Counted from the first letter of the stretch, positions 40,660 through 58,401 are shown. The stretch: 64,000 bases of DNA from a virus (IMGVR_UViG_3300000228_000004:1-64000), one strand, 5' to 3'. Notes: generated from the sequence alone by a model not told the origin. Numbers and translations are program-made.

Positions 40660-41214
40660 TTACGAAACTGATACTAAGTAATTTTCTATAAAAGAGCGTA
40701 TTTCATTTTCGCCATCAAAATTATTAGTGAATTCATGATCATATAGACCATCTTTTTCGATGTTTCTCACGAAATCATCGAAACCATTTTCACGGTGTAT
40801 TGGTGTTTTTGTTTTTATTAATACGAAAGTGAAACCATTTTCCTTACACCAATCATATTCGTTCTGTGTCCTTACATCAGAAATGACAATACTATCCACA
40901 TTTAAAAGTAATAGTTCTTCTTGTAACATTCTCACAAACAACCCGTCTTCAGAATTCCTCAGAGAATTTAAACTCAGCCAAATTTCCCTTGGAGTTTTAG
41001 AGATAAGTTCCCCTGTCTTCGGTACTACTATATTCAATGGTTTTTCTTTTTCTTCAGGTGGGTAGTCCTTTTTCATCCAAGGGTAGATCTTAACTGCTAA
41101 TTTTTTTAATTGGTCACTGAAACTAATTCTGTTAAAACCATATTTTGTTACCATGGTTTTTACTACATAGTCTTTCCCAACACCGCTCACCCCCAATATT
41201 GCTATCTTATTCAT
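40660..41214 (-). CDS. Deoxynucleoside monophosphate kinase (T4 gp1-like)
   Basis: A 184-residue P-loop kinase. Walker A-like GVSGVGKDYV has Asp in place of the usual Ser/Thr, as seen in phage dNMP kinases. DVRTQNEYDW is the probable Walker B region, then FVLIKTKTP. It converts dNMPs, possibly including modified ones, to diphosphates. It overlaps the ATPase gene upstream by 8 bp and lies at the downstream end of the base-modification cluster. Confidence 0.75.
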   Translation of the reverse strand: MNKIAILGVSGVGKDYVVKTMVTKYGFNRISFSDQLKKLAVKIYPWMKKDYPPEEKEKPLNIVVPKTGELISKTPREIWLSLNSLRNSEDGLFVRMLQEELLLLNVDSIVISDVRTQNEYDWCKENGFTFVLIKTKTPIHRENGFDDFVRNIEKDGLYDHEFTNNFDGENEIRSFIENYLVSVS

Positions 41215-41749
41215 AATCTCGTACCGCCTTTAATATTTCTAAAATTTCACTCACTGCGTTTTCACCAATCTTAACTATATGGAATGGTTGATTATTTTTT
41301 ATTAACATATCTTTTATCCTTTCATCTAGCTCTTCTGACTCTGATAGAGTTTGTCTTCTTCCGTATGTTTGGTATGGGTGCTCTTTGGTATCTCTCTGTA
41401 AGAATATATTCAGGTGGTCATACGAATTCCAAATACCTAAAATAAGAGCTTCGAATTCTTTTTCTGGGAGATGTTTACTTTCTTGTAGGTAAACAGAACC
41501 CAGTAAAAATGGTCCATCATTAACTGTATAGTCAACTTGCTCTTCAAGTTTGAACCAATGGTGATGTTGTTTAGCCAATATCATCAATTGATCTTTTAAT
41601 TTATAGAAATCCTTACTGTATACAAGCCCTTTTGCGTATTCAGTAACGAACTCAACCTCGTACCCAAGCTTTTTCATTGAATGGAAAACCCCTGCGGCAG
41701 TCGTTGATTTTCCGGAAGACGGACCTCCGAATAGGTTGATATTCAACAT
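41207..41749 (-). CDS. P-loop ATPase, NadR kinase-like (AAA_28 type)
   Basis: 180 residues. Walker A FGGPSSGKSTTAAG at the N-terminus, then EFVTEYAKG, which resembles the ribosylnicotinamide kinase domain of NadR. NDGPFLLG and FLQRDTKEHPYQTYGRRQ follow, typical of a phage ATPase family whose substrate is unsettled. With Nampt and NMNAT elsewhere in the window, nicotinamide-riboside kinase is possible. Confidence 0.65.
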   Translation of the reverse strand: MLNINLFGGPSSGKSTTAAGVFHSMKKLGYEVEFVTEYAKGLVYSKDFYKLKDQLMILAKQHHHWFKLEEQVDYTVNDGPFLLGSVYLQESKHLPEKEFEALILGIWNSYDHLNIFLQRDTKEHPYQTYGRRQTLSESEELDERIKDMLIKNNQPFHIVKIGENAVSEILEILKAVRDYE

Positions 41750-41936
41750 TTACCATCCTCTAAAATTTCATAATTTAGTGTTATTTCGTTTCCTCGACAA
41801 ACGGGACAGGCGTAATATTCGTTTTCACCAAACGCGCCATACCCTTAATTTTACCATTTCCAGAACATTCAGTGCATAGTATTACGACACCATCATTTAG
41901 TAAATCTTCCAATTTCACTTTTTTATTTTCAATCAT
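41743..41936 (-). pseudogene. Small zinc-ribbon gene, frameshifted
   Basis: From the ATG at 41936: MIENKKVKLEDLLNDG, then CTECSGNGKIKG. Shifting frame at GGG (one G fewer than needed) gives YGAFGENEYYACPVCRGNE and a stop that overlaps the next ATG. The two CxxC pairs make a plausible zinc ribbon. Without the shift the product ends after about 51 residues. Confidence 0.6.
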
Positions 41937-42735
41937 AGTACCACCCTTTTTTTACCAACATTTCTTTCGCCTCTTCAGTCGTTAATTCAATTGCTTCACC
42001 TTGCATAAATGGGGTATCTATTTTGATAAGAACTTCTTTCGAAAGTAGGCTACCTTTTTTGAAATACAGTGGTTTACTTTCGAAGCACCTGAACCCAATA
42101 ATTGTCCTTTTATTCGGGAGATCATTCGGAACCCCGTGTAAAAACTTCGTGTTATCAAAAATAATAGTATCACCAGGAGCTAAGTTTAGCTCAAATACTT
42201 CTCCAGCATGATTCATGAGACATAAACCTTTACCGCCATTTTCATTTTCAAGGACAACCACCATAACCAACCGTGGGATGAGCCCTTCCCTTATTTCAAT
42301 CTTATCTTTCCCCCATTCACCGTCAAACACTTCGGCATCAAAATGATATGGTATAGAATTACTATAATGGGATCCTTCTTTGTAATATTGGTAGTTGAAA
42401 AGAGACTTACTGTTTCCAGAAACAACTTCACCTATAAAACCGCCTAATATATCATTATATAATGAAAACAGCCCACCGAGAAGACCGTCTATTTTCAGAA
42501 ATGGTGCAGTATCTGGTTCACCCAAAGAAACCATTACTGCGCCACCGACCCTTCCTTCAGTTTCTTCCCTTTTTCTATATAATTTGCGCTCGACCAAATA
42601 ATCACTATACCCTATATCTATATTTGGTATAATATCATCAGTTAATTTTTTAGTATCCAACTCAGACAGAATGTCATAAATGACACAAAACCCATTCAAC
42701 TTCAGATCTGAAATATAATCTTCTATGTATTCCAT
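41929..42735 (-). CDS. 2OG-Fe(II) dioxygenase
   Basis: A 268-residue protein. The iron ligands are His131 and Asp133 (PYHFDAE) and His200 (KFLHGVP), with Arg210 (NKRTIIGF) for 2-oxoglutarate. LAPGDTIIFDN precedes the distal His, as in the double-stranded beta-helix fold. It would hydroxylate a small molecule or a base. In this cluster, DNA hypermodification or amino-acid hydroxylation is plausible. Confidence 0.8.
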   Translation of the reverse strand: MEYIEDYISDLKLNGFCVIYDILSELDTKKLTDDIIPNIDIGYSDYLVERKLYRKREETEGRVGGAVMVSLGEPDTAPFLKIDGLLGGLFSLYNDILGGFIGEVVSGNSKSLFNYQYYKEGSHYSNSIPYHFDAEVFDGEWGKDKIEIREGLIPRLVMVVVLENENGGKGLCLMNHAGEVFELNLAPGDTIIFDNTKFLHGVPNDLPNKRTIIGFRCFESKPLYFKKGSLLSKEVLIKIDTPFMQGEAIELTTEEAKEMLVKKGWYYD

Positions 42736-42950
42736 TAATTATCCCTGTATTCTGAGAATAATATTGTTATTTCTTCTTTTGACAATCTTTTTGGACCTGC
42801 CAATGAGAAATGATATACAAACTCATTCCCGAGAAAAGTGGTCATGCCGTATAAGTTATTCTCTACTATTTGGACTTCTAGTGGTATGTTTATTTCTTCT
42901 GGGGTGGAAATAAATACTTCATTTCCTATTGTTAATTCAAACGAAATCAT
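42735..42950 (-). CDS. Unknown 71-residue protein
   Basis: MISFELTIGNEVFISTPEEI, mostly beta. Overlaps its neighbours by 1 and 4 bp within the modification cluster. Confidence 0.65.
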   Translation of the reverse strand: MISFELTIGNEVFISTPEEINIPLEVQIVENNLYGMTTFLGNEFVYHFSLAGPKRLSKEEITILFSEYRDN

Positions 42951-44041
42951 CTTTCTACCCTTACAAACTCAAATTTTCTGAAAAATGAATTCTCTAAACT
43001 ATGGTACAATTCATCAGAACATTTGATTTTGACCGTGTCTGTGGAAAGTGAGAATTGTTCTTCATATTTTTTATGTAAAATATATGTAAGCACTAAATTG
43101 GAATATAAATATAAAAGATTATCTGTTGTTGGAACATTAAACCGCTCAAATAAATCATCCAAGCCCGTGTATTCTTCACCACTGAAATCAGTATCGGTCG
43201 TGATTATTGAGGATAAATGAGAAACCAACCCCTGAAAAAATTCATGAATTTTTTCAATTTCAGGAAATTCTATTTCATCATCTGCTAGTAATCCATTTTC
43301 TTGTGAAATTTTATTCGTGATAACATCATACCCCTGTTTCCCTGAAAAATCATAAAGGTGCATATTAGTCACATGGTGATTATAAACGCCTAAAGTAACT
43401 TCTGGGTCAATTTCAGATTTGATATATTGAAGAATCATTTCTTGTAAAAATGTCCATTCAAAAATATTTATACTACCTAGCCCCCAAACAATATCACCGC
43501 TCCTAGATTTGACATTCATATTCAATTTCTTATCAGGTGTAACGAAAAAATCTAATACCATGTTACACGGTCTGTCTTTTCCTTTTTCTATACCATCTTC
43601 TTGAAGTGCTGAAGTAGAGTCAATAGACGGGTCTGAAATAACCATCACGGCTCTTCTCGTGTAAATTCCTTCGTTCCTGAATTGCTGAAGGACGTCATTT
43701 ATCTGCTCATTACTGGAAATCCTTTCTGGATAACCCCCTCTCCACGAAATACCGTCATCAGAATAATCACTTGCTCTGGGCAGGAAAAAACTTAGGTACG
43801 GGTCTATTTTATTAGAACCAGCAAATACCCAAAATGTTTCTGCTATCGTAGCAAATATATTGTTTTTTCTACCAATGAGAGAAAGATGCCTTGCTTTAGG
43901 ATTTTCTAGAGTGATGAACGCATTATATACTGAAAGAATTCCACCATTCCTAGATTTGGTTCTATGCCCCTCGCTGATAAGTTTATCCAATGATTTGTAA
44001 ACAACTTCATTGATAGTTTTCCCTTTGATTTGGTTCAACAT
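42947..44041 (-). CDS. Thymidylate-synthase-family dUMP/dCMP hydroxymethylase
   Basis: A 364-residue protein. The catalytic Cys159 lies in KDRPCNMVLDF. MNVKSRSGDIVWGLGSIN (~175-192) matches the RSxD..G..N nucleotide-binding motif, and EMILQYI follows. YNHHVTNMHLYD corresponds to the C-terminal HVYxNHxD-type motif. Such phage enzymes add hydroxymethyl (or methyl) at C5. The neighbouring hmU-type kinases and dUTPase favour 5-hydroxymethyl-dUMP over hydroxymethyl-dCMP (inference). Confidence 0.85.
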   Translation of the reverse strand: MLNQIKGKTINEVVYKSLDKLISEGHRTKSRNGGILSVYNAFITLENPKARHLSLIGRKNNIFATIAETFWVFAGSNKIDPYLSFFLPRASDYSDDGISWRGGYPERISSNEQINDVLQQFRNEGIYTRRAVMVISDPSIDSTSALQEDGIEKGKDRPCNMVLDFFVTPDKKLNMNVKSRSGDIVWGLGSINIFEWTFLQEMILQYIKSEIDPEVTLGVYNHHVTNMHLYDFSGKQGYDVITNKISQENGLLADDEIEFPEIEKIHEFFQGLVSHLSSIITTDTDFSGEEYTGLDDLFERFNVPTTDNLLYLYSNLVLTYILHKKYEEQFSLSTDTVKIKCSDELYHSLENSFFRKFEFVRVER

Positions 44042-44232
44042 TCGTGTAACTCCTTTTTTGAATTTATATGGGCGGATGGTATTTTAATAAAATATTGGGT
44101 ATACCCGTATTTTTCAATGCACTCACCGCAAATTTTGATATCTCTATTGAACTCTATTGAAATAAAACCTGAAAAATGAAATATTCCATTTTCTTCTTTT
44201 GTAGAACCACACACATCACATTTAATGCACAA
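44035..44232 (-). CDS. Small zinc-ribbon protein
   Basis: 65 residues with CIKCDVCGS and ICGECIE. Start 2 bp from the window's ordinary spacing; stop overlaps the hydroxymethylase start by 7 bp, so they are translationally coupled. Confidence 0.7.
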   Translation of the reverse strand: MCIKCDVCGSTKEENGIFHFSGFISIEFNRDIKICGECIEKYGYTQYFIKIPSAHINSKKELHEC

Positions 44233-44277
44233 ACCGACCCCTTGTTTAAAATATATTGACTTATCGGGATTGAATTA

Positions 44278-44907
44278 TCAATCCCTTTTTCTTGGTTTGG
44301 TTGATAACCTTGTTTTACCGAGCTTCGTTTTCTTGTTACTGAAAATTAGGTTAGTTAATCTATCCGAATATTTCTTATACTGAAAACAATCTGGGATGTA
44401 AATAACCTCAAGTTTATCTGGGAAATGTATGGCACTTATTGATACTGTCGTATTTTCACGAATTCTATCTTCGCCATCAGGAAAAACTTTCATGAGACTT
44501 TCTTCAAGAACAGGTAGTATGTGCTTGATATCAAATGCTACAGCATAAAGTAAAACGCCTTCTCTTGAGTAACCAGCTGAAATATATAACCCATTTTCAT
44601 TCTTATACTTCTGGAAAGATTTCCAAGTCAAATTATTGAAAATTCCTCTCCCCGAAACTGGTTTATTCTCCCCAATAGTTTCATTTTTTACTTCTAGGAA
44701 CAAGTTGCCTCTCTTACCATCCCAACCATGTTTTTCTGATATGTGGTGTCCGTGTATAAGATCTACTGTTATTCTTTCCCTCACAGAGTCTCCGCCACCA
44801 GTCATAAGGTTTTCACAAGAAAACCTCGAAAATGCGTTCGCTTCTTCTAAGTTGTCAAAATCAGATAATACCCCAGTCTTAGCATAATTCATTATATTAT
44901 GGTACAA
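44278..44907 (-). CDS. Possible PD-(D/E)XK-type nuclease
   Basis: 209 residues. KRGNLFLEVKNE gives an ExK catalytic pair after a strand, preceded by VDLIHGHHISEK with several His; the basic C-terminus (KKTKLGKTRLSTKPRKRD) fits DNA binding. The assignment is weak and rests on the ExK motif and context beside modification genes. Confidence 0.5.
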   Translation of the reverse strand: MYHNIMNYAKTGVLSDFDNLEEANAFSRFSCENLMTGGGDSVRERITVDLIHGHHISEKHGWDGKRGNLFLEVKNETIGENKPVSGRGIFNNLTWKSFQKYKNENGLYISAGYSREGVLLYAVAFDIKHILPVLEESLMKVFPDGEDRIRENTTVSISAIHFPDKLEVIYIPDCFQYKKYSDRLTNLIFSNKKTKLGKTRLSTKPRKRD

Positions 44908-44910
44908 AAG

Positions 44911-45090
44911 TCACCCTTTAGTTGAAATTCTAGAGGTAGACCATTCTTTGGTTGAGCGACGAGAAAGATAGTAACCCATCCCGAATGCTGACATACGGTA
45001 TTCTTTCAGCATTTGTAACGCTTCTTTTCTTGTTTCAAATTGGTCAACTGTTTCAACCACCCCATTTGTTTTAGTGTTGATGTATAGCAT
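44911..45090 (-). CDS. Small protein, unknown function
   Basis: 59 residues: MLYINTKTNGVVETVDQFET, helix, then GYYLSRRSTKEW. RBS GAAAGGTG. Own promoter element at 45111, overlapping the end of the upstream gene. Confidence 0.65.
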   Translation of the reverse strand: MLYINTKTNGVVETVDQFETRKEALQMLKEYRMSAFGMGYYLSRRSTKEWSTSRISTKG

Positions 45091-45110
45091 TTTTCACCTT
45101 TCTTATCATA

Positions 45111-45157
45111 TAATATCTTATATTATACCGTAATTTGGTTTAAAATAAACTTAACCG
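45111..45157 (-). promoter_or_regulatory. Phage promoter element
   Basis: GTTAAGTTTA, TTTTAAACCAA, ATTACGG, TATAATATAAG on the minus strand, inside the 3' end of the 45140 gene; internal start for the downstream part of the cluster. Confidence 0.65.
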
Positions 45158-45733
45158 ATCACCATTTATTTGAGCCGCAGTTGATTGATAATAGTGAGTA
45201 GTACCAGTTCCGTTATCACTAGAAACCCTCACATATTCATTGAAATTTTTAGCGTTCATAATCCATTTGAATTTTACCAAATAATCACCACTGGGGGTAT
45301 TTTCATAGTACCCAACCACGATATAATCAACAAGTCTATTGTATTTTAAAAAAGTGGTTAAATTCGCCCTTGTCAGTTGGTGTTCATTTGGGTTATTTGC
45401 CCCAGAAATATTGAAATTGAACCATCTATCGTTTTTATTGGAAGGCTTCACTTCTATAAAAGAACCGTCGACCTCAACATCATAAGCAAAAGAGAGAGGA
45501 TTCAACGGGTCATGCTTTTGGGTATTAAGTTTACCGCCAAGAAGTGATGCTAAAGCAACTTCTAGTATTACACCACTTTCGCAGTTTTTCATCAGAACTT
45601 CATCCGTTCTACCGTGTGTTTGACCATTTTCCTTTATCTCTTGAAACAAATTAAGTGATAATTCTGAAATATCTTCTTTAGTGACCACGATTGGTTTTCG
45701 AAGCTTAATTAAAATATTGTTGGTTAAAACCAT
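45140..45733 (-). CDS. Putative PD-(D/E)XK endonuclease
   Basis: 197 residues. The core AYDVEVDGSFIEVKPSNK shows D and E-V-K in the spacing of PD-(D/E)XK enzymes (Asp ~105, ExK ~113). Upstream GVILEVALASLLGG gives the helix with a conserved Glu. It overlaps the kinase gene by 10 bp, so it is expressed with the modification operon. A nuclease that acts on unmodified DNA would make sense here; that is inference. Confidence 0.7.
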   Translation of the reverse strand: MVLTNNILIKLRKPIVVTKEDISELSLNLFQEIKENGQTHGRTDEVLMKNCESGVILEVALASLLGGKLNTQKHDPLNPLSFAYDVEVDGSFIEVKPSNKNDRWFNFNISGANNPNEHQLTRANLTTFLKYNRLVDYIVVGYYENTPSGDYLVKFKWIMNAKNFNEYVRVSSDNGTGTTHYYQSTAAQINGDRLSLF

Positions 45734-46410
45734 TCTGTATCCTTTGATGGTGCTGTTTCTTTAATTGAATTTACAATTTCCCAATTTTCGTTAAAATACA
45801 TTTTTACTAACGCGTCTCGACTTTCCTTGAAATCTATATGTTTTACTAGATTATTTTCAGAAGCACCCATATTATTTTTGTAATATATTAACAGGGTTTT
45901 AAAAAGTTCATTGTCCGACCACCCAGATGAATTTTCAGCCCAATCAAGACCTCTGGTTTTTCCAGTTCTCTCGTTCGTTCTTTGCAAAAACTCAGTTATA
46001 TCATCATAATAAGAAGCAATCAAGTGTACTTCATCACACCCATTGGCTTCCCAACTCGGAATATCGCCTCGCTTAGAACGGTTGTTAAAATAACCCTCCA
46101 TAAAAATAGTGGTTATTTCTGGGTATTGTTTTGCTAACGCTGGTATCTTTTCTAACCGTTGTTCCCAATTTGAAAACATTGCTGTATCAAGACTGACCCA
46201 TTGTGTACCACCTTTGGCAAATCTACCCAATACGAACCAACCATTTTCGAATAGGAATCCTATATCTTCTTGCTTAGGTTCTTTACCCTTTCTTTCAATT
46301 TTACCGCGTATCACTGAATACTCGAATTTTGAAATCAAGTAGTTCACTAAGAAATATGTTCTTGTTGATTTCCCGGAACCATTTGACCCCATATAATTGA
46401 TTAGTCTCAC
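45724..46410 (-). CDS. P-loop kinase, 5-hmU DNA kinase-like
   Basis: 228 residues. Walker A MGSNGSGKSTRTYFLV at the N-terminus; TTIFMEGYF supplies the Walker B-like Glu; NERTGKTRGLDW is the basic lid. The organisation fits the P-loop kinases that phosphorylate 5-hydroxymethyluracil in DNA in thymidine-hypermodifying phages. The same fold occurs as the C-terminal half of the next protein upstream (46444). Confidence 0.7.
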   Translation of the reverse strand: MRLINYMGSNGSGKSTRTYFLVNYLISKFEYSVIRGKIERKGKEPKQEDIGFLFENGWFVLGRFAKGGTQWVSLDTAMFSNWEQRLEKIPALAKQYPEITTIFMEGYFNNRSKRGDIPSWEANGCDEVHLIASYYDDITEFLQRTNERTGKTRGLDWAENSSGWSDNELFKTLLIYYKNNMGASENNLVKHIDFKESRDALVKMYFNENWEIVNSIKETAPSKDTEWF

Positions 46411-46430
46411 TATTTATCCTTTACTTTCAA

Positions 46431-46467
46431 ATATTATACCATATCATTCTTTTGTTTGACTTAAACC
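46431..46467 (-). promoter_or_regulatory. Promoter-like element
   Basis: GGTTTAAGTCAAAC, a longer spacer, then GGTATAATATT before the kinase gene at 46410. Half-site spacing differs from the main family, so confidence is lower. Confidence 0.4.
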
Positions 46468-48234
46468 AATTTGTGAAAATTCACCTTTCACGAACCTAGA
46501 AAAAACTTCTTTTATCGTTCCAGATGTATCTAATTCTAATAATTGAACCACATTTCCACCGAGATCGTTGTGTTCTTGATAAACTTTCTTCGCAGTTGAA
46601 AGTCTCTCGTATTTTTTTTCTACTGCTTTAAGTTGGTTCATTTCTTCATCAGATTTACCAGTCCTGTTTTTAATTCTTACCAGTGCTTCTTCGTAGGAAG
46701 TACTTAAAAAAAGTACCACTGGCTTCCTTAGTGTCATATTCTTTAGTGTATCAAAATATGCAGCTATTGTATCTGATGGTATTGAACCCTCTAGATACAC
46801 GCTAAAATCACTGAACTCTTTCCTGTTTAATACTTCTATGGCATACATGATTTCTTTCTTCTTGAGCGTGTCACATCCCCCAAAATTAGATTCCACTCCA
46901 TAGTTACCCAAAGAGATGAAGTTATATTTCGGAAAAACCGTGAAAATGGTTTTCTTAAAATAATTTGAATAAATTTTATACGAAAGAGAATCAGTTGCAA
47001 GCATTTGCTTGGGGATAGTTGATTTTCCGGCACCGTTCCCCCCCTTGACATACATGAAAGTTGGTTCACTTTTTTTAATTATTTCAAAAAAACTTTCATC
47101 AAATTTTTCGACTGGTGTATCAAACCAGTCATCATATAAATTAGGCGCGTAAACTTCTTTCTTAACGATGTCGAGTTCGATGTCCCCAACGAAGTTGAAT
47201 GTTTCTTCGTACTCGTAAATTTCTACTTCAGTGGGCATCTTTCTATTCAAATTTTCGGCGGAAGTTTTAAGGTCTGGTACTGACCCAACTACCCAAAACA
47301 GGGTTTTATCGTTTATCAGTTCTGGGTGATTTTTTAATAGGTATTCGTAAACTTTCGCTTCATATCTATAATGAAATGTTATGTCATCTATTTGAATACC
47401 CTTAATGGTTTTAGAATACGGTTGTTTCGTGTCGTGCCAAATGAATTCAAACATCGATGTGTCAGCACCCATTAAAGAAAGCCTTTCAAACATATAGTCA
47501 CGCTTATCGACCCCCACATTTATGAGGTGTATTCTTTTCAATGCCTTTGGCGTATCTTTATCATCACTTAACCCCAATAATATAGAAGTTGCTGAATTCG
47601 CTGAGCCGAATGGTATGATTAGATCAGTGATAAAGGTTGGTATATTCTTTACCTGATGAGCGCCAACTTTATGGAAATCAGTTACCATCTTAGCTGAATT
47701 CACAGAAAGCCTATGATCCAGAGTGATATCTCTTTCAATGGTAAATGATTTCGGGAACTTTTCCATAACTTCCCCGACCCTCTTTTGTATATTCACATTA
47801 AACCCAGAGCCACTTGATATTTCATACTTAGTACCAAACATAGTCGCGAATAAAGGAAGTTGGTGTTTATTTATAGCGTCGAAACTTGTCCCACCAGCCA
47901 CTTGAATACACCGAAGCCCGTAATGCTCTGCCATTGCGGCAGCCATAATGGTCTGTGGTGATGAGTTGACATTCGTTGCGTGTATTACTGTATCAGCACC
48001 CGTTGGTCTATTTTCAAATAAGTGAAGGAGTTGTCTACACTTAGACCCGTTCGCGGTGTTTATCCCGAAAAGAGAGAATTTATCTTCTCTCTTATAGTAC
48101 ATACCATCTGATTTCTGTTCCACTGGGGTTAGTTCCCACATATAATCTTTCCACCGTTTACCTTCCGGAAGAGGAAAGGGTACAACGGAATCTCGTAAAT
48201 CTTCATTCAGTGTAATTCTTTCTGTCATAACCAC
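46444..48234 (-). CDS. PLP-dependent enzyme (fold type II) fused to P-loop DNA-base kinase
   Basis: 596 residues, two domains. Residues 1-~330 follow the tryptophan-synthase-beta/ACC-deaminase fold: YYKREDKFSLFG, then NGSKCRQL with PLP Lys65 (family GGNKxRKL), NSSPQTIMAAAMAEHYGL, and a phosphate loop in IPFGSANSATS (~210). Residues ~390-580 are a kinase: YVKGGNGAGKST, GGCDTLKKKE, VYLEGSIPSD, RIKNRTGK, like 5-hmU DNA kinases. PLP enzymes act in some thymine hypermodifications, but a fold-II/kinase fusion is unfamiliar to me. It may make or process the group attached to the activated base. Confidence 0.75.
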   Translation of the reverse strand: MVMTERITLNEDLRDSVVPFPLPEGKRWKDYMWELTPVEQKSDGMYYKREDKFSLFGINTANGSKCRQLLHLFENRPTGADTVIHATNVNSSPQTIMAAAMAEHYGLRCIQVAGGTSFDAINKHQLPLFATMFGTKYEISSGSGFNVNIQKRVGEVMEKFPKSFTIERDITLDHRLSVNSAKMVTDFHKVGAHQVKNIPTFITDLIIPFGSANSATSILLGLSDDKDTPKALKRIHLINVGVDKRDYMFERLSLMGADTSMFEFIWHDTKQPYSKTIKGIQIDDITFHYRYEAKVYEYLLKNHPELINDKTLFWVVGSVPDLKTSAENLNRKMPTEVEIYEYEETFNFVGDIELDIVKKEVYAPNLYDDWFDTPVEKFDESFFEIIKKSEPTFMYVKGGNGAGKSTIPKQMLATDSLSYKIYSNYFKKTIFTVFPKYNFISLGNYGVESNFGGCDTLKKKEIMYAIEVLNRKEFSDFSVYLEGSIPSDTIAAYFDTLKNMTLRKPVVLFLSTSYEEALVRIKNRTGKSDEEMNQLKAVEKKYERLSTAKKVYQEHNDLGGNVVQLLELDTSGTIKEVFSRFVKGEFSQIGLSQTKE

Positions 48235-49460
48235 TCACTTATTTGTTTTTCTATGGTTGGGGTGATTTTATTATTGGTTTTCTTCCCATACCATTCTTTT
48301 TCTTTTTCTTCGTGATTAATGAAGAAATTATTTTTAAAAACTGGGTTATAATTTTCCATCATAATAACTTCCCCTGTTTTCTTATACCAATTCTGTTTGA
48401 CCTTAACCAATCCTGGGTCATTCGGGTTATCTTCCATCCTAAGTTCAGAAGGAAGATATTTTCTTCTTGCTTCCCAAAAATCTTTGAAATCTATATCAGA
48501 CCCATCAATTTCTTTCCAATCCCTTGTTTCTGCTTTTTTTATTCTATCATGGAACATATCATTATAAACATTAGGATATCTTCTATTTTCCCTGTGCCAA
48601 CTCTTATAGCAACAAAGCGTGGACTCAAGGGTGAAGTAGTTCACATCTTCAAAGAACGGTTCTTGTGAAAATCTTTCCTTGGCATCTGATAATAGTACCG
48701 CGCCCTCTTTTTCTAGCCAAATCATAACTTCTTTGTTATGCCCGTTGACTATTTCTGTTGGTAAATCTTGGTTATCTTTTCTAACATCAAGATCATCCCT
48801 ACCACTCACTACACAAAGACCGTTCCGGTGTGATTTTGAACCAGATTTATCATAAATGAAGAGACTACCGCAATCTATGTTTAATCCCATAATTTTAAGA
48901 TACTCAAGGTATGAAAATGTTGAAAGCCTTCCATACATAAAAAAATCGTTAAAAACGGTATCCCAAACTTTTTCAAAATTTCCATAAACATCACCAGTAT
49001 CACAAAGGTCTGAAAAATACCCTTCTTGCGTTTTACCACCCAATAATTCTAGGTAATTTTGGTACATTTCAATGAAGTGACCCTTTTGGTATCTTCTGTC
49101 GATATCATAGTCGAGGTTTTTCCAATATTCTCTATGCCATTTTTCCATGTCTTCTATAGAAGAAGACCTTAAAGAAGGGAAATGTTTAAATAACACCCAG
49201 GAAGTGAGTGGGTTTTGTGTTGCTCCGTTTATAAACGCGAACCACAATCTTGTCTCAAAATCCCAATCATGTTTCTTAGCCAAGAAAGGCATCACATAAT
49301 ATACTGCCCCTGGATGAGATTTATACTTTAAATGGAACCCATAAAAATTAAGGAAAACTTCTCTTCTATATTCAGGCAACCGAAAATCAACGCCCTCTGC
49401 TAATTCCCTTTCTTCGACCCCATTTATGTGACAAAATCTACCCAATACCATTGATATCAC
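48225..49460 (-). CDS. Amino-acid:DNA transferase / pyrophosphorylase-like protein of hypermodification type
   Basis: A 411-residue, mostly helical protein (GFHLKYKSHPGAVYYVMPFL, then WFAFINGATQNPLTSWVLFK, HFPSL). The helical scaffold, lack of other domains, and tight overlaps with the PLP-kinase (10 bp) and HAD (23 bp) genes fit the amino-acid:DNA transferase / alpha-glutamyl-putrescinyl-thymine pyrophosphorylase families proposed by comparative genomics. That family assignment is from recalled patterns and needs a profile search. The likely role is to replace the phosphate on 5-phosphomethyl-dU with an amine or other nucleophile. Confidence 0.6.
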   Translation of the reverse strand: MISMVLGRFCHINGVEERELAEGVDFRLPEYRREVFLNFYGFHLKYKSHPGAVYYVMPFLAKKHDWDFETRLWFAFINGATQNPLTSWVLFKHFPSLRSSSIEDMEKWHREYWKNLDYDIDRRYQKGHFIEMYQNYLELLGGKTQEGYFSDLCDTGDVYGNFEKVWDTVFNDFFMYGRLSTFSYLEYLKIMGLNIDCGSLFIYDKSGSKSHRNGLCVVSGRDDLDVRKDNQDLPTEIVNGHNKEVMIWLEKEGAVLLSDAKERFSQEPFFEDVNYFTLESTLCCYKSWHRENRRYPNVYNDMFHDRIKKAETRDWKEIDGSDIDFKDFWEARRKYLPSELRMEDNPNDPGLVKVKQNWYKKTGEVIMMENYNPVFKNNFFINHEEKEKEWYGKKTNNKITPTIEKQISEWL

Positions 49461-49983
49461 CTTTTATGAATTCATAAATTTCCACCCATTCAACATAAGG
49501 GAATTCGTCACTGGGCGAGTTAAGGAAACTTTTAATTTGAAAAACTTTAGAATGAGGGGAAACATCCCTACAATATTTCTTATAGTCATCAACGAAATAA
49601 TCACATCTCACGAATTTCTTATCAGAAGTGGACACAAACCCCTTAGAGTATGGGAAATTTCTTCTTATGAAATGTCGTTTCGATTCTTCATGCTCTGGGA
49701 TACAACTTGATACGAATATTATACCAATACCGAGTTCGTGGATTTTTTGTAAGTATATTTTAGCATGTTCAAATGCTTCTAATTTATCATATAACTTAGG
49801 GTCTCTCCAAAATTTCATTGGGTCATTATGATTTTTCATCAAGGTTTCTAGGTCATTATTCTCAGATGAAAGTGACCCTAAATCATCCCCAGTCAAATCT
49901 TTGTACCAATTTACCCAAGGGGTAACTGAGTCAACCACTGTTAAATCAACATCGACCGCGATTATTTTATTCATTTCAGACAT
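49438..49983 (-). CDS. HAD-family phosphatase, deoxynucleotidase-like
   Basis: 181 residues. Motif I is VDVDLTVVDS (Asp nucleophile), motif II Ser in FVSSCIPEH, and motif IV FVDDYKK. The spacing fits 5'(3')-deoxyribonucleotidases. In phages that replace or modify T, such enzymes can deplete dTMP. It overlaps the transferase-like gene by 23 bp. Confidence 0.8.
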   Translation of the reverse strand: MSEMNKIIAVDVDLTVVDSVTPWVNWYKDLTGDDLGSLSSENNDLETLMKNHNDPMKFWRDPKLYDKLEAFEHAKIYLQKIHELGIGIIFVSSCIPEHEESKRHFIRRNFPYSKGFVSTSDKKFVRCDYFVDDYKKYCRDVSPHSKVFQIKSFLNSPSDEFPYVEWVEIYEFIKGDINGIG

Positions 49984-50006
49984 TTTTCACCTTTTTGTTC
50001 ATTTTA

Positions 50007-50141
50007 CTAAAGTAACCTTTCAGAAACCTTAAATCTTTTTAATAAACCACGCTTAGTATGTTTCATAGATTTAAGGTCAGTATAAGTTTCAGTTCCGACT
50101 TTAATTTTATTTGAATAATTTGGTGTTATCTTCGTTACCAT
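50007..50141 (-). CDS. Possible small basic protein
   Basis: A 44-residue frame starting inside the dUTPase 3' end (MVTKITPNYSNKIK...) and continuing past its stop with SMKHTKRGLLKRFKVSERLL. The stretch after the dUTPase looks coding, but the start is uncertain. Confidence 0.35.
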   Translation of the reverse strand: MVTKITPNYSNKIKVGTETYTDLKSMKHTKRGLLKRFKVSERLL

Positions 50142-50748
50142 TTTCATCAAATTTTGCATATGCATCAGCTGATTCAGTATAACCGCCGTCAACTCTTTCG
50201 TGGTTCAGTTTATTCTTCCCCATATATAATTGATACATATATTCAGGTGTCATATTCGCGTACCACCCAAGTGAATTTATCAGGTACACGAACGCGGTCA
50301 ATGATTCTTCCCTTTGGTCTAAAAGAGAAGATAATGAAAATGAATTGATATCTAACATCAATCCACTAGATAAATTTTCCCCATTTTCATCAAATTCCGC
50401 TTTAGAGAACTCCTCGTGGCAAGAAATATAATCACCTAACAATTGTTCTATATTAGACCCGTAATTCATAATCAATACACTGATCGCAAAGTGGATAATA
50501 TCAACTGCTTCTACTTGCATGTTATTAAAGTCATTCTCTAGGAAAATTTTCCACCACTTCCAACCAGTTCCTGTATCACCAGTCCTAGGGGAACTTTCCA
50601 ATAGTTCCCCTAACTCAGCCATCATTGCTGAAATAAAGTGTGATTTTGGGATAATCTCAGCCCAATCTTCCCCTGAATACTTCTCATTTAATAATACCTG
50701 TGCGCTCAAAATTTCACTAAATTCATTTACTTTCATTATGTTAAACAT
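50107..50748 (-). CDS. Dimeric dUTPase (all-alpha NTP pyrophosphatase)
   Basis: 213 residues. AMMAELGELLESS and WKWWK, then VEAVDIIHFAIS form the E..E...E..D metal site of the dimeric dUTPase/dCTPase group; KNKLNHERVDGGY near 180 matches KN.LN..R...GY. It removes dUTP and supplies dUMP to the hydroxymethylase. Confidence 0.85.
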   Translation of the reverse strand: MFNIMKVNEFSEILSAQVLLNEKYSGEDWAEIIPKSHFISAMMAELGELLESSPRTGDTGTGWKWWKIFLENDFNNMQVEAVDIIHFAISVLIMNYGSNIEQLLGDYISCHEEFSKAEFDENGENLSSGLMLDINSFSLSSLLDQREESLTAFVYLINSLGWYANMTPEYMYQLYMGKNKLNHERVDGGYTESADAYAKFDENGNEDNTKLFK

Positions 50749-50759
50749 TATTTTTCCTT

Positions 50760-51189
50760 TTATTTATGATTTGAAGTACTCAGTACTTCACCGTCCTTAT
50801 CAACCCATTTTCTCAGTTTGAAATCCAGTATATACATAGTTTTATCTGAATTTTCTTTGGCATCAATCGTGTGTTTTGTGCCCTTAGATTCCCCATCCCA
50901 GATAACCAAGAACATACCCGAATTATCCCAGATGGTTTTGTTTCTTATAAAACCAGCACTTTCCATATTTTTCCCAATCAGCTGGGTAAATTTCAGTGGG
51001 AATATCATTTACTTCAGTATAATATTCAGCCATAGAATCTATCCCTCTTGCGCCACCTGATACTATAGTGTCAAATTGTGTTTTTAAACGCATAGAGTCT
51101 AAAATTTTTACCAAAAGGTCAAAATCTTCAAACCCACGGGAACCAATGACCGCTAATCTTATCACGGGGGGGAGAACCACTTTTTTCAA
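50760..51189 (-). pseudogene. SLOG-domain (DUF2493/DprA-like) protein with a frameshift
   Basis: The first frame (51189-50923) has RLAVIGSRGFEDFD and IVSGGARGIDSMAEYY, the Rossmann-like SLOG nucleotide-binding motifs, then PADWEKYGK. The continuation AGFIRNKTIWDNSGMFLVIW and SKGTKHTI lies in the next frame (to 50760). One A missing in the AAA run after GG at about 50966 explains this. SLOG proteins bind or cleave nucleotides. Confidence 0.75.
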
Positions 51190-51206
51190 TCACTGTCTCA
51201 TCCTTA

Positions 51207-52388
51207 TCAATGCGTTTTCAACCACTCATCGGTTTGTTTTATTTCAGTATCTGAATCATTTGGATTTCGTTTATACCTATTTCTTGGTCTTCCAGTTTTC
51301 TGTTTCACAGAGACTATTTTTTGTAATTCACAGAAACTGTTTTCACACATCATAACATTTAATTTTCGATCTTCCTCTGGTAAATGGTCAAAAAGTTCAC
51401 TATAATCAATGTGAAGTCCGCGTTTTTCCCATTCAGTCTCTATATTATCCCTGACCCAGAATAATGCTTCTTCGTGGGTCATACCGTCCCTGTCTTCCAT
51501 TAAAAGGTCTATCCCTCTATCACATCCTGGCCCAGACACTACGAATTCATTTTCACTGAACTTGAATTCTGGTATATATGTTAAGTCAACAAATACTTGG
51601 TACGCCAAAAACCCAGCCAATCCTGGGATTTCTCTCAAAATATTGAATACTTCCTCTTGAGTATTCGCCCCTTGAACTCGAGTGGATATATCCGTGTTTT
51701 TAACCCATTGTATCATGTGTATCATCCTAGTTGGCATATTTTTTTCTACACCAACTATTTCATACCCTTCATTTTCTTTAATATACCCCTTTGCTTCTTT
51801 CCAGGTCATTTCTTCTGTGTCAATATGACCTTCTTTTCTTACCTCAACCACCATACCCGAATTCGTGCATTCGTACTCTAATGTTTTAGGGAAAGCCCAA
51901 CTTGCTTTGAGCCCACCAGTGTTAAATGCTGGTGTGAAAAATGCATATTTCGGATTTTCTTTAGCATATTCGATAAATATTTCACGGAACGCGTCTATGT
52001 CTAAATTGTCAAAATCTTCTATGTAACCACCAAATAATTCTGATGTACTAGACTTGTTATATGTTCTGAAGAAGATAGAATTGAGGATCTTTACTTCTAG
52101 TGTTAGATTCGGGTTTGTGCTAATATTCTTAATCAACCATTTAGACTCTCTATCGAGTTCACGCCTTACATTAGTGAATCTATAATTCTTGAACACTTCA
52201 TCGTCTGTCCATTCTTGTTGTGGTAATTTTTCAATTTCTTTTCTTTTGTGTATATTGTGTCTTTCAGACATGAACAAATTATGATATCTTAGCACCTCTT
52301 CATTTAAAATCGGTTTCGCGTTTTTTATCTTTTCGATATCAACACCACAATATCTAATATCGGCTTCCTTTGTTTTCATTAAAACCAT
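51207..52388 (-). CDS. Alpha-glutamyl/putrescinyl-thymine pyrophosphorylase-like protein
   Basis: 393 residues. A DNA-glycosylase-like helical fold: FRTYNKSSTSELFGGY (~105), then a helix-hairpin-helix-like LREIPGLAGFLAYQVF (~255) and VVSGPGCDRGID (~290), the GPG..RG motif of the aGPT-Pplase group. Such proteins are proposed to displace pyrophosphate from activated hmU and attach glutamate or putrescine. It lies between polymerase and dUTPase genes and overlaps the polymerase start by 10 bp. Confidence 0.75.
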   Translation of the reverse strand: MVLMKTKEADIRYCGVDIEKIKNAKPILNEEVLRYHNLFMSERHNIHKRKEIEKLPQQEWTDDEVFKNYRFTNVRRELDRESKWLIKNISTNPNLTLEVKILNSIFFRTYNKSSTSELFGGYIEDFDNLDIDAFREIFIEYAKENPKYAFFTPAFNTGGLKASWAFPKTLEYECTNSGMVVEVRKEGHIDTEEMTWKEAKGYIKENEGYEIVGVEKNMPTRMIHMIQWVKNTDISTRVQGANTQEEVFNILREIPGLAGFLAYQVFVDLTYIPEFKFSENEFVVSGPGCDRGIDLLMEDRDGMTHEEALFWVRDNIETEWEKRGLHIDYSELFDHLPEEDRKLNVMMCENSFCELQKIVSVKQKTGRPRNRYKRNPNDSDTEIKQTDEWLKTH

Positions 52389-53548
52389 TCCTCAAGTTTA
52401 AAATTTTGCTTCATATCATAACCAACTGCTTCTAACATAAGGTTAAGTGGTGATATGAAATAATCTTCCCACATTTTACCCCTATCAACATATTTTTCAA
52501 GCCCAGAGTCTGTTATAAAGTCAGAATCTAGAAACCCGATTATATCATCACCTAAAATGTTGGGTTTCTTTAAAATACAATATTTTATTTTATCACTGTC
52601 TGTTATTTTAGGGTATTTGGATAACCCAGTTCTTTCTAAAAAAATATTGTAATTCATTGCCGCCCTTACATTCATTGGCGCAGTTAAAATTTTTCCATTT
52701 TTCTTAGTGGTGAATTTACCTATACCCCCCTTATAATCCAAAGACCCGATACCAGAAACCCTGCATATGTCACCCAATGGTGCTTTGTAGAATTTCTCTT
52801 CTATCTCAGATATAGAAGCAATCGTTTCTTTTGCATCGTTATCTAGAATTACATTCACCATATCTTTGAGATATTTCCTACAAAAGGGCGGAGTAGAAGA
52901 TCGTACTATCTCCAACCCAGTGACCGCCAATTTAGGGTCATCGACAAGTATAGACCCTTCGTCCCAAACGGCACGCAAAGCATATTTTTTCTTTGCAACA
53001 AACATCCCTTTATCGGCAATTTTTTCAAGTTTTGCCCCGATGGGCTTGGCACTAAATGCGTTGAAATTGTCTGAGAAAGAATCTATGTATTCTTGGACCC
53101 ATACATCGAGGTATTTATGATCAAAATTAACAAGTTTATCAAGTATTTCGTGATTATTAGCGGTGTCGAATTTTTTTACTAATTCATTAAGAGTAAAATA
53201 CACAGAGTCGGTGTCACCATAAACTACAAAGTCAATATTGGTATTAAGAACACTTCGTAACTTCCCATTTACATAATTCGCCAATCCTTGTATAAATATC
53301 CTACCGTTCCCAGTGATACTTGCAGCAACATCTCGATTGAATAGTAAAAAGTGTATATTTGCTAGAGCACCATATAATGAGTTCATCGAAATCTTTAGAG
53401 CCATCTGATATACATCGAAATAAGCAATTCTAGTGTCTATATATTTCATATCTGCCGTTAAACCACTAACATCCAAATCGTTGATTTTATCAATCGTCAT
53501 TGAACCGTCTTCTATACCATCGTAAATTTCTTCTATTGTCATGTTCAC
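52379..53548 (-). CDS. 43: DNA polymerase, C-terminal piece (gp43C)
   Basis: 389 residues: a leader (MTIEEIYDGIEDGSMT) then family B motif B, KISMNSLYGALANIH (~55); motif C, FVVYGDTDSV (~108); a KKKYAL thumb motif (~180); and a C-terminus with LMLEAVGYD. It corresponds to the half of T4 gp43 from the fingers tip onwards. It must pair with the 58401-57136 piece. No intein is visible at either edge. Confidence 0.92.
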   Translation of the reverse strand: MNMTIEEIYDGIEDGSMTIDKINDLDVSGLTADMKYIDTRIAYFDVYQMALKISMNSLYGALANIHFLLFNRDVAASITGNGRIFIQGLANYVNGKLRSVLNTNIDFVVYGDTDSVYFTLNELVKKFDTANNHEILDKLVNFDHKYLDVWVQEYIDSFSDNFNAFSAKPIGAKLEKIADKGMFVAKKKYALRAVWDEGSILVDDPKLAVTGLEIVRSSTPPFCRKYLKDMVNVILDNDAKETIASISEIEEKFYKAPLGDICRVSGIGSLDYKGGIGKFTTKKNGKILTAPMNVRAAMNYNIFLERTGLSKYPKITDSDKIKYCILKKPNILGDDIIGFLDSDFITDSGLEKYVDRGKMWEDYFISPLNLMLEAVGYDMKQNFKLEEWF

Positions 53549-57096: not shown

Positions 57097-57141
57097 GTTA
57101 TAATATATTATACCGCAAGTTAGCTTAAAGTAAGGTTAAAC
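57097..57141 (-). promoter_or_regulatory. Phage promoter element
   Basis: GTTTAACCTTA, CTTTAAGCTAA, CTTGCGG, TATAATATATTATAA. The distal half-site overlaps the stop region of the polymerase middle piece. Confidence 0.75.
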
Positions 57142-58401
57142 AGTCTTCAATTTAGCTTGTAATGCTTTATACATTAACATTTTTCTCTTTACTTCTTTCC
57201 TAGTAGAATAAATGTTCCCTACTATTTCGGGTATTATACCCTCATTGTCACGCCTAAAGAAAGCATTCATGCCAAAAGCAACATCATATTTATGCGTAAC
57301 TTCTCTAATTTCAGCAAGGCTATCAGGATTAAGGTACACTTCTTCATGCTCGTGTGTGTGATACTTAGCTCGTAAATTTTTCAATTCTTGAGGCAACTCA
57401 TATTCATTTATATATGTTTCTGGTGACATATTAAAAGCGCGCATACCAAGTAACGGGTACATTGAGTTGACGTCGACTGAAACCAACCAATTATGTTTAC
57501 CCTTTTGTGGTTGTCGAACATAACCACCAATAATTGTTTTATCTAGGCGGCTATGTCTGTCGAACGGCATTACAAGTCCCTCTTTCATAGCAAGGTTAGT
57601 CAGATATTGCCCCCAAGGTTTAACAGTGCCGAAGGAGTCATCCATATTAATACCCATCATTGAAGATAAAATTTTCATAAGCTCTATTAACTTCAGTTTA
57701 TCCTCTAGTTTTTTCAGGAGCAAAACATCTTGTATAGAATATTCTATGAATAAGTCTTTATCCCCGTGATAGAAATCTACTATATCATCAAACTTCCCAT
57801 AGTCAACCTTACCCTCACCAACACCAAGTTCCACTTTAACGATGTTGTCCAATGCGTATGACACTTGTGGCTTAGTTACGAACTTTTTGTATGCTTTCAT
57901 CATATCGATTAGATAAATTCCTTCCCAGTCATAGTTCATCCCTTCCATCGTTTTTATCTCTTTAACTTTATTAATTGGGGATAATCTTCTATAATTCACC
58001 CCGTCCAATTTCATTGCTCTGTTAGTGATATATGGGAAGTCGAATGAATCACCATTCCAAGCAGTTATAACCGTCGGTTTTAAATTTTCAAGTAATTTAA
58101 TAAAATCTTTAAAAAGTTCTTTTTCATCATAGTAGTGTTTGAATATCAAATTATCATATTTCTTAAATTTGGTTTCGTCGACCATTTTGTCTAAACTTAG
58201 AATTATTATCTTGTTGCTATAACTGTCGTATATCTGTATTTGTGAAACTGTCTTTTCAGCAAGCTGAGGATCTGGGAATGACTTATCTGCGTAATAACAT
58301 GAATTTTTAAATAAAACCCATTCATTCAATTCTTCATCGAATACTTCATAGTCAGTATAATCTTCAGCAAGAATCTCCGACATTTTCATTATTTTTTCCA
58401 T
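57136..58401 (-). CDS. 43: DNA polymerase, middle piece (gp43B)
   Basis: 421 residues. It starts with its own GGAGGAA site. SFPDPQLAEKTVSQIQIYD (~38) resumes the exonuclease domain; VITAWNGDSFDFPYI (~112) is Exo II; YSIQDVLLLKKL (~225) is Exo III. Motif A is VSVDVNSMYPLLGM (~310), followed by the start of the fingers (RKEVKRKMLMYKAL). Exo I is on the N-piece (59099); motifs B and C are on the C-piece (52379). Three polypeptides must assemble. Confidence 0.92.
   Translation of the reverse strand: MEKIMKMSEILAEDYTDYEVFDEELNEWVLFKNSCYYADKSFPDPQLAEKTVSQIQIYDSYSNKIIILSLDKMVDETKFKKYDNLIFKHYYDEKELFKDFIKLLENLKPTVITAWNGDSFDFPYITNRAMKLDGVNYRRLSPINKVKEIKTMEGMNYDWEGIYLIDMMKAYKKFVTKPQVSYALDNIVKVELGVGEGKVDYGKFDDIVDFYHGDKDLFIEYSIQDVLLLKKLEDKLKLIELMKILSSMMGINMDDSFGTVKPWGQYLTNLAMKEGLVMPFDRHSRLDKTIIGGYVRQPQKGKHNWLVSVDVNSMYPLLGMRAFNMSPETYINEYELPQELKNLRAKYHTHEHEEVYLNPDSLAEIREVTHKYDVAFGMNAFFRRDNEGIIPEIVGNIYSTRKEVKRKMLMYKALQAKLKTV

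What the first reader, a model, noticed from the sequence alone, without database searches (positions are those of the whole stretch)
40660..52388. A large DNA base hypermodification operon
Seen: a thymidylate-synthase-fold hydroxymethylase (42947), dUTPase (50107), HAD deoxynucleotidase (49438), dNMP kinase (40660), a stand-alone P-loop kinase (45724), a PLP-enzyme/kinase fusion (46444), an aGPT-Pplase-like protein (51207), a helical transferase-like protein (48225), and a 2OG oxygenase (41929), many overlapping. Known: thymidine-hypermodifying phages (phiW-14, SP10, ViI, M6 types) make hmdU, phosphorylate it in DNA, then substitute it by pyrophosphorylase or amino-acid-transferase enzymes. 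Inference: this phage carries a hypermodified T or U whose final side chain cannot be predicted from this enzyme combination.
Basis: partly seen in the sequence, partly recalled or inferred. Interest (0 to 1): 0.88.

Follow-up and report, generated by a model that had tools for sequence, protein, structure and literature searches.

The report
Phage operon decorating DNA thymines
This phage carries a compact set of genes that should replace many thymines in its DNA with a bulky, amino-acid-derived base, as Salmonella phage ViI does, but the parts are rearranged: a tailoring enzyme is fused to a DNA kinase, and an unstudied oxygenase and a homologue of a host-DNA-cutting nuclease have been added.

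Summary
Every named gene is present, and profile or fold searches place the core enzymes in 5-hydroxymethyl-dU (5-hmdU) hypermodification families. These are a dUMP hydroxymethylase (42947), two 5-hmdU DNA kinases (the C-terminal domain of 46444, and 45724), the kinase-associated helical protein (51207), an amino acid:DNA transferase (48225) and an ACC-deaminase-fold PLP enzyme (N-terminal domain of 46444). Each has a homologue in Salmonella phage Vi01. The transferase model (pLDDT 91) has one credible match among solved structures, the 5-PmdU glycinyltransferase PUGT. So the combination is readable as ViI-type: 5-hmdU is phosphorylated, the phosphate is displaced by an amino acid, and a PLP enzyme trims the adduct. 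The exact amino acid stays open, because the transferase and PLP domains fall in clades well separated from ViI's. New here are a PLP-kinase fusion not seen elsewhere in the collections searched; a 2OG-Fe(II) oxygenase found in only three contigs; a DenB-like endonuclease and a second D-x8-ExK protein; and a slot beside the transferase that relatives fill with PLP or GNAT/amidoligase modules, sometimes fused to kinases. Verdict: a new variant of a known kind. Nothing was tested chemically.

The parts
51207..52388 (-). Helical partner protein of the 5-hmdU DNA kinase (HMUDK_hel, PF18723); homologue of Vi01_130c
   Evidence: PF18723 9.8e-61, phrog_2396 1e-76; 40% to Vi01, 42% to Vibrio phage 1.244.A
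50107..50748 (-). dUTPase_2-family pyrophosphatase (clears dUTP, supplies dUMP)
   Evidence: PF08761 1.2e-17
49438..49983 (-). HAD 5'-deoxynucleotidase (NT5C); homologue of Vi01_194
   Evidence: PF06941 6.8e-8; tblastn to Vi01 4e-18
48225..49460 (-). Amino acid:5-PmdU-DNA transferase (ADDT-like); displaces the phosphate with an amino acid
   Evidence: tblastn 3e-27 to Vi01_199 (PF18724); fold pLDDT 91; only credible PDB match is 5-PmdU glycinyltransferase PUGT, prob 1.00; BFVD best match a phage ADDT-domain protein 2.6e-22
46444..48234 (-). Fusion: N-terminal fold-type-II PLP enzyme (about aa 1-345, K65 = Schiff-base lysine) and C-terminal 5-hmdU DNA kinase (HMUDK1, about aa 390-590); ATG at 48228 is the likelier start
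   Evidence: K65 aligns with the ACC deaminase lysine K51; PF18748 6.5e-25 with intact Walker A GGNGAGKST
45724..46410 (-). Stand-alone 5-hmdU DNA kinase 2 (HMUD2-like)
   Evidence: PF18747 2.1e-5; orthologues in relatives 1e-6 to 9e-10; invariant P-loop residues with Vi01_196
45140..45733 (-). DenB-like endonuclease IV; overlaps the kinase gene by 10 nt
   Evidence: phrog_1360 5e-14; D85-x8-E94-x-K96 invariant; similar to annotated denB of T4-like phages
44278..44907 (-). Second nuclease-like protein (D63-x8-E72-x-K74 invariant), unknown family
   Evidence: alignment A7; phrog_3210 2.7e-5, function unknown
42947..44041 (-). dUMP hydroxymethylase (thymidylate-synthase fold); catalytic C159, dUMP-selecting N192
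   Evidence: phrog_3676 1.2e-80; alignment A4
41929..42735 (-). Putative 2OG-Fe(II) oxygenase next to the hydroxymethylase; candidate additional tailoring enzyme
   Evidence: H131, D133, H200, R210 invariant in 3 homologues; homologues lie directly after the TS gene in L016 and L097; fold hits 2OG oxygenases
41207..41749 (-). P-loop nucleotide kinase-like protein (AAA_28), conserved in the operon of relatives
   Evidence: PF13521 1.6e-12, phrog_2107 1e-16; present in L016 and L097
40660..41214 (-). dNMP kinase (hmdUMP to the diphosphate); homologue of Vi01_059c
   Evidence: phrog_139 7e-28; tblastn to Vi01 1.7e-15

Best explanation
This is a ViI-type thymidine hypermodification operon. dUMP is hydroxymethylated (42947), raised to 5-hmdUTP (40660 and host kinases) with dUTP removed (50107), and incorporated by the phage polymerase. 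In DNA, 5-hmdU is phosphorylated to 5-PmdU by the P-loop kinases (46444 C-terminal domain and/or 45724, with helical partner 51207). The transferase 48225 displaces the phosphate with an amino acid. The PLP domain of 46444, tethered to the kinase, then trims the adduct, most likely by decarboxylation to an aminoalkyl base such as 5-(2-aminoethoxy)methyl-dU. DenB-like 45140 (and perhaps 44278) would cut DNA lacking the modification. Shown here: gene identities, conserved catalytic residues, the fold match to a 5-PmdU glycinyltransferase, synteny. Inferred: order of steps, amino acid, final base, roles of the 2OG oxygenase and nucleases.
For: Each core enzyme maps to Vi01; the Ackermannviridae set is the same (PMC6336734). 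The transferase fold matches only 8z2m/8z2n 5-PmdU glycinyltransferase (prob 1.00, next 0.02). PLP lysine aligned to ACC deaminase K51. Hydroxymethylase Cys and dUMP Asn conserved. Gene order conserved in independent contigs. A transferase gene is fused to, or lies within about 10 kb on the same strand of, most PLP genes found: 42 of 80 within 300 bases or fused, and most of the rest within 10 kb. Radical SAM absent from the record.
Against: The transferase is only 24-27% identical to Ackermannviridae ADDTs, and both transferase and PLP domains fall in clades separated from ViI's by long branches, so amino acid and product may differ. Close relatives G001 (155 kb) and G004 (141 kb) show no HMUDK1 kinase, so the two-kinase scheme is not universal in this lineage. 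The 2OG oxygenase has no counterpart in annotated phage records, ViI included. The decarboxylase role of the ViI-type PLP enzyme rests on recalled papers (Lee 2018, 2022) not held in the library. No nucleoside analysis exists.
Confidence: 0.7

Rival explanations
1. The early steps are the same, but the product is a different side chain: another amino acid (glycine or other) is attached and the 2OG oxygenase hydroxylates the adduct or its precursor, giving an undescribed base.
For: The 2OG gene directly follows the hydroxymethylase gene in L016 and L097 with its metal site invariant. The transferase clade is distinct and includes mycobacteriophage Fortunato. The nearest solved enzyme uses glycine.
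Against: The oxygenase was found in only three contigs; the other syntenic contigs are truncated at that end or lack it, so it may do something unrelated. The PLP active site is conserved with ViI's.
Confidence: 0.25
2. The operon is partly decayed or redeployed: the fused kinase acts on free nucleosides and the DNA carries only 5-hmdU.
For: The fused kinase also shows a weak deoxynucleoside-kinase match (PF01712 2.5e-5). One neighbouring gene is frameshifted in the window.
Against: PF18748 outscores dNK by about 20 orders of magnitude. All core ORFs are intact, with conserved motifs and conserved order.
Confidence: 0.05

Closest known systems
Salmonella phage ViI (Vi01, Ackermannviridae) 5-NeOmdU pathway
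   Same: dUMP hydroxymethylase, HMUDK1, HMUD2, HMUDK_hel, ADDT, PLP enzyme, NT5C and dNMP kinase all have homologues
   Different: In Vi01 the genes are scattered (about 37, 87, 140, 148-152 kb) and PLP and kinase are separate; identities about 22-40%; no match to the 2OG oxygenase or DenB-like protein
Vibrio phage 1.244.A hypermodification cluster
   Same: Clustered TS, kinase, hel, ADDT, HAD, with a split B-family polymerase nearby
   Different: PLP gene separate and about 10 kb away, no fusion; kinase 2 closer to the ViI form
Pseudomonas phage PaMx11 5-PmdU glycinyltransferase gp46 (PUGT; PDB 8z2m, 8z2n)
   Same: Same fold by Foldseek (prob 1.00, TM 0.57-0.62 by target length)
   Different: 11-13% identity; no sequence-level match found in PDB sequences; amino acid may differ
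IMG/VR relatives L095, L096, L097 and variants L106, L138
   Same: Same gene order; transferase 70-77% identical in the first three
   Different: None has the PLP-kinase fusion; L106 and L138 carry an amidoligase, with GNAT (L106) or a glutamine amidotransferase (L138), and no detected PLP enzyme

Membership tests
ViI-type thymidine hypermodification (5-NeOmdU) | dUMP hydroxymethylase with catalytic Cys and dUMP-selecting Asn | tested here: met
   C159, N192 invariant in A4
ViI-type thymidine hypermodification (5-NeOmdU) | 5-hmdU DNA kinases HMUDK1 and HMUD2 | tested here: met
   PF18748 6.5e-25; PF18747 2e-5, just under cut-off, supported by orthologues over it
ViI-type thymidine hypermodification (5-NeOmdU) | Helical kinase partner protein (HMUDK_hel) | tested here: met
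   PF18723 1e-60
ViI-type thymidine hypermodification (5-NeOmdU) | Amino acid:DNA transferase (PF18724) | tested here: met
   No direct PF18724 hit, but homologous to Vi01_199 (3e-27), and the fold matches PUGT and ADDT-domain proteins
ViI-type thymidine hypermodification (5-NeOmdU) | PLP enzyme of the Vi01_182 family with active-site Lys | tested here: met
   33% identity, 4e-50; K65 invariant
ViI-type thymidine hypermodification (5-NeOmdU) | Virion DNA contains 5-(2-aminoethoxy)methyl-dU | not testable with these tools
   needs LC-MS of virion DNA
M6-type (5-NedU) hypermodification | Radical SAM enzyme in the pathway (recalled from Lee 2022) | tested here: not met
   PF04055 absent from G000 (110.5 kb, possibly incomplete)
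SP10/phiW-14-type aGPT-PPlase systems | aGPT-Pplase family domain | tested here: not met
   no aGPT-Pplase hit at E<=1 among the ten operon proteins scanned
T4 DenB endonuclease IV | sequence homology to DenB family phrog_1360 | tested here: met
   5e-14 for 45140
T4 DenB endonuclease IV | cleavage of DNA lacking the phage modification | not testable with these tools
   needs nuclease assay

The most novel reading that the evidence does not exclude
The operon makes an undescribed thymine derivative: a kinase-tethered PLP enzyme and a dedicated 2OG-Fe(II) oxygenase act on an amino acid newly attached to DNA, and a DenB-type endonuclease re-targeted from modified C to modified T destroys DNA that lacks it. 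The slot beside the transferase is a plug-in site where relatives swap PLP for GNAT/amidoligase modules.
Probability: 0.22. Interest if true: 0.8.

Novelty: new variant of a known kind. Interest (0 to 1): 0.52.

Why it matters
It puts a complete amino-acid-on-DNA pathway into about 12 kb, with domain fusions (PLP-kinase here; PLP-transferase, hel-kinase and GNAT-amidoligase-kinase in other phages) that point to channelled multi-enzyme complexes, and it exposes a swappable tailoring slot. If the oxygenase acts on the base, 2OG hydroxylation would join radical SAM, PLP, flavin and acetyltransferase enzymes (as I recall them from Lee 2022) as a tailoring class for thymidine hypermodification. A DenB homologue in a T-modifying operon makes self/non-self discrimination on T testable.

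Tried and rejected
A single-protein scan of viral contigs for the fusion found nothing; alignment-based scans worked. The 2OG protein has no hit among annotated phages, no relative among bacterial genomes and only two further viral contigs; its structure model is poor (pLDDT 48.6), so only the fold class is used. Homology between 44278 and the DenB-like protein was tested and not supported (hhalign prob 2%). The PDB search with A4 is not used because E. coli ThyA was in the alignment. Lee 2018, Lee 2022 and Iyer 2013 are not held, so pathway details from them are recollection. M6-type and aGPT-type readings were rejected: no radical SAM, no aGPT-Pplase domain.

Full report
What is there. The window is part of a 110,523-base virus record. 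On the minus strand between 52.4 and 40.7 kb lies a tightly packed gene run. Profile searches give a dUMP hydroxymethylase of the thymidylate-synthase fold (42947), dUTPase_2 (50107), an NT5C-type HAD nucleotidase (49438), a dNMP kinase (40660), another P-loop kinase-like protein (41207), a 5-hmdU DNA kinase 2-like protein (45724), a PLP-5-hmdU-kinase fusion (46444), the kinase-associated helical family (51207) and a transferase-like protein (48225). The run also holds a DenB-like endonuclease (45140; phrog_1360 5e-14) and a second protein with an invariant D-x8-E-x-K signature (44278).

Mapping to a known pathway. Each core protein was compared with the whole Vi01 genome: the hydroxymethylase matches Vi01_060c, the PLP domain Vi01_182, the kinase domain Vi01_061c, 48225 Vi01_199, 51207 Vi01_130c, 49438 Vi01_194, 40660 Vi01_059c. 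In Pfam, Vi01_061c is HMUDK_HMUD1, Vi01_196 HMUD2, Vi01_199 ADDT (amino acid:DNA transferase) and Vi01_130c HMUDK_hel. Published annotation of Dickeya phage PP35 gives the Ackermannviridae set as dUMP hydroxymethyltransferase, two kinases, a PLP enzyme and two aGPT-PPlase-type proteins (PMC6336734); ViI DNA carries 5-(2-aminoethoxy)methyl-dU (PMC6449724). From recollection of Lee et al. 2018 and 2022, not held here, five ViI proteins suffice to make the base from 5-hmdU DNA, and amino acids are attached and then decarboxylated by a PLP enzyme.

Catalytic residues. The hydroxymethylase keeps the nucleophilic Cys (C159) and the Asn that selects dUMP (N192, at E. coli ThyA N177). The PLP domain keeps K65, which aligns with K51 of ACC deaminase. 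The fused kinase keeps its Walker A motif GGNGAGKST. The 45724 kinase scores 24.3 bits against a cut-off of 25, but its orthologues in three close relatives and one variant score 28.7-38.7.

The transferase. With a 16-sequence alignment the model of 48225 reaches pLDDT 91. Among solved structures the only credible match is 8z2m/8z2n, a 5-PmdU glycinyltransferase from phage PaMx11 (probability 1.00; the next is 0.02); among viral models the best is the ADDT-domain protein of mycobacteriophage Fortunato. This supports a phosphorylated intermediate displaced by an amino acid.

Relatives. Viral-contig scans found independent contigs with the same order: polymerase halves, helical protein, dUTPase, HAD, transferase, PLP, kinase 2, nuclease(s), hydroxymethylase, then oxygenase and kinases (L095, L096, L097). 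Transferases there are 70-77% identical to the window's. L106, L138 and L099 lack a detectable PLP enzyme; L138 has an amidoligase and a glutamine amidotransferase beside the transferase, and L106 a 700-aa GNAT-amidoligase-HMUD2 fusion. So the slot beside the transferase looks swappable.

Fusions. Among the loci fetched, PLP-HMUDK1 occurs only in the window; PLP-ADDT fusions occur in L017-L021, L025 and L026, and an HMUDK_hel-HMUDK1 fusion in L133. A PF18748 kinase was not found in G001 (155 kb) or G004 (141 kb), so the window phage may have gained HMUDK1 by this fusion, or the relatives use kinase 2 alone.

How far the product can be predicted. Trees put the window's transferase and PLP domains in clades separated by long branches from the ViI pair. 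Amino acid attachment followed by PLP trimming is likely, but 5-NeOmdU itself is only the leading guess. The oxygenase 41929 keeps H131-x-D133...H200...R210 with two homologues, both directly after the hydroxymethylase gene; its low-confidence model (pLDDT 48.6) still hits 2OG oxygenases first. It may hydroxylate the adduct or a precursor; nothing here shows that.

Self versus non-self. T4 DenB degrades DNA lacking the phage's modified C, and DenB homologues have been proposed as markers of non-canonical bases (PMC8056088). A DenB homologue overlapping the kinase gene in a T-modifying operon, also present in L095, L097 and L106, suggests discrimination on modified T. This is inference.

Verdict. 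The operon is real and is a new variant of a known kind, ViI-type thymidine hypermodification, with a new fusion, an unexplained oxygenase and nuclease partners. The chemistry is untested.

Noticed in passing
50760-51189 (-): A YspA/SLOG-family gene is broken by a frameshift into two overlapping ORFs (50923-51189, 50760-51008); relatives L098, L015, L106 and L138 have it as one ORF in the same operon. Assembly error or real lesion not resolved.
   Followed up: partly
L007:363-1902 (record 64363-65902, just right of the window): A UvsX/RecA gene is split into two ORFs whose abutting ends match the two halves of the intein splicing domain, with a stop and a short spacer between them: probably an adjacent naturally split intein.
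   Followed up: partly
52379-53548 and 57136-58401 (-): The family-B DNA polymerase is split into two ORFs about 3.6 kb apart, as in relatives; Vibrio phage 1.244.A also has a split polymerase.
   Followed up: partly
L138:6463-9484: A relative carries a GDP-mannose/GDP-fucose-type sugar nucleotide gene set between its polymerase and the hypermodification genes; purpose unknown.
   Followed up: no
L008:7274-7834 (record 91274-91834): A dCMP deaminase in the same record could supply dUMP to the hydroxymethylase.
   Followed up: no
18951-20399 (-): Nicotinamide phosphoribosyltransferase (NAMPT) gene in the phage, perhaps part of an NAD-salvage function.
   Followed up: no
L017-L021, L025, L026: PLP enzyme fused with the amino acid:DNA transferase (about 720 aa where complete), with PLP domains about 62-66% identical to the window's.
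   Followed up: partly
L010:1258-2826: Mycobacteriophage Fortunato gp02, annotated hypothetical, is an ADDT-domain protein 42% identical to the window transferase; its downstream 'terminase small subunit' label may deserve a check, since phrog_800 of that name covers the 5-hmdU kinase.
   Followed up: no
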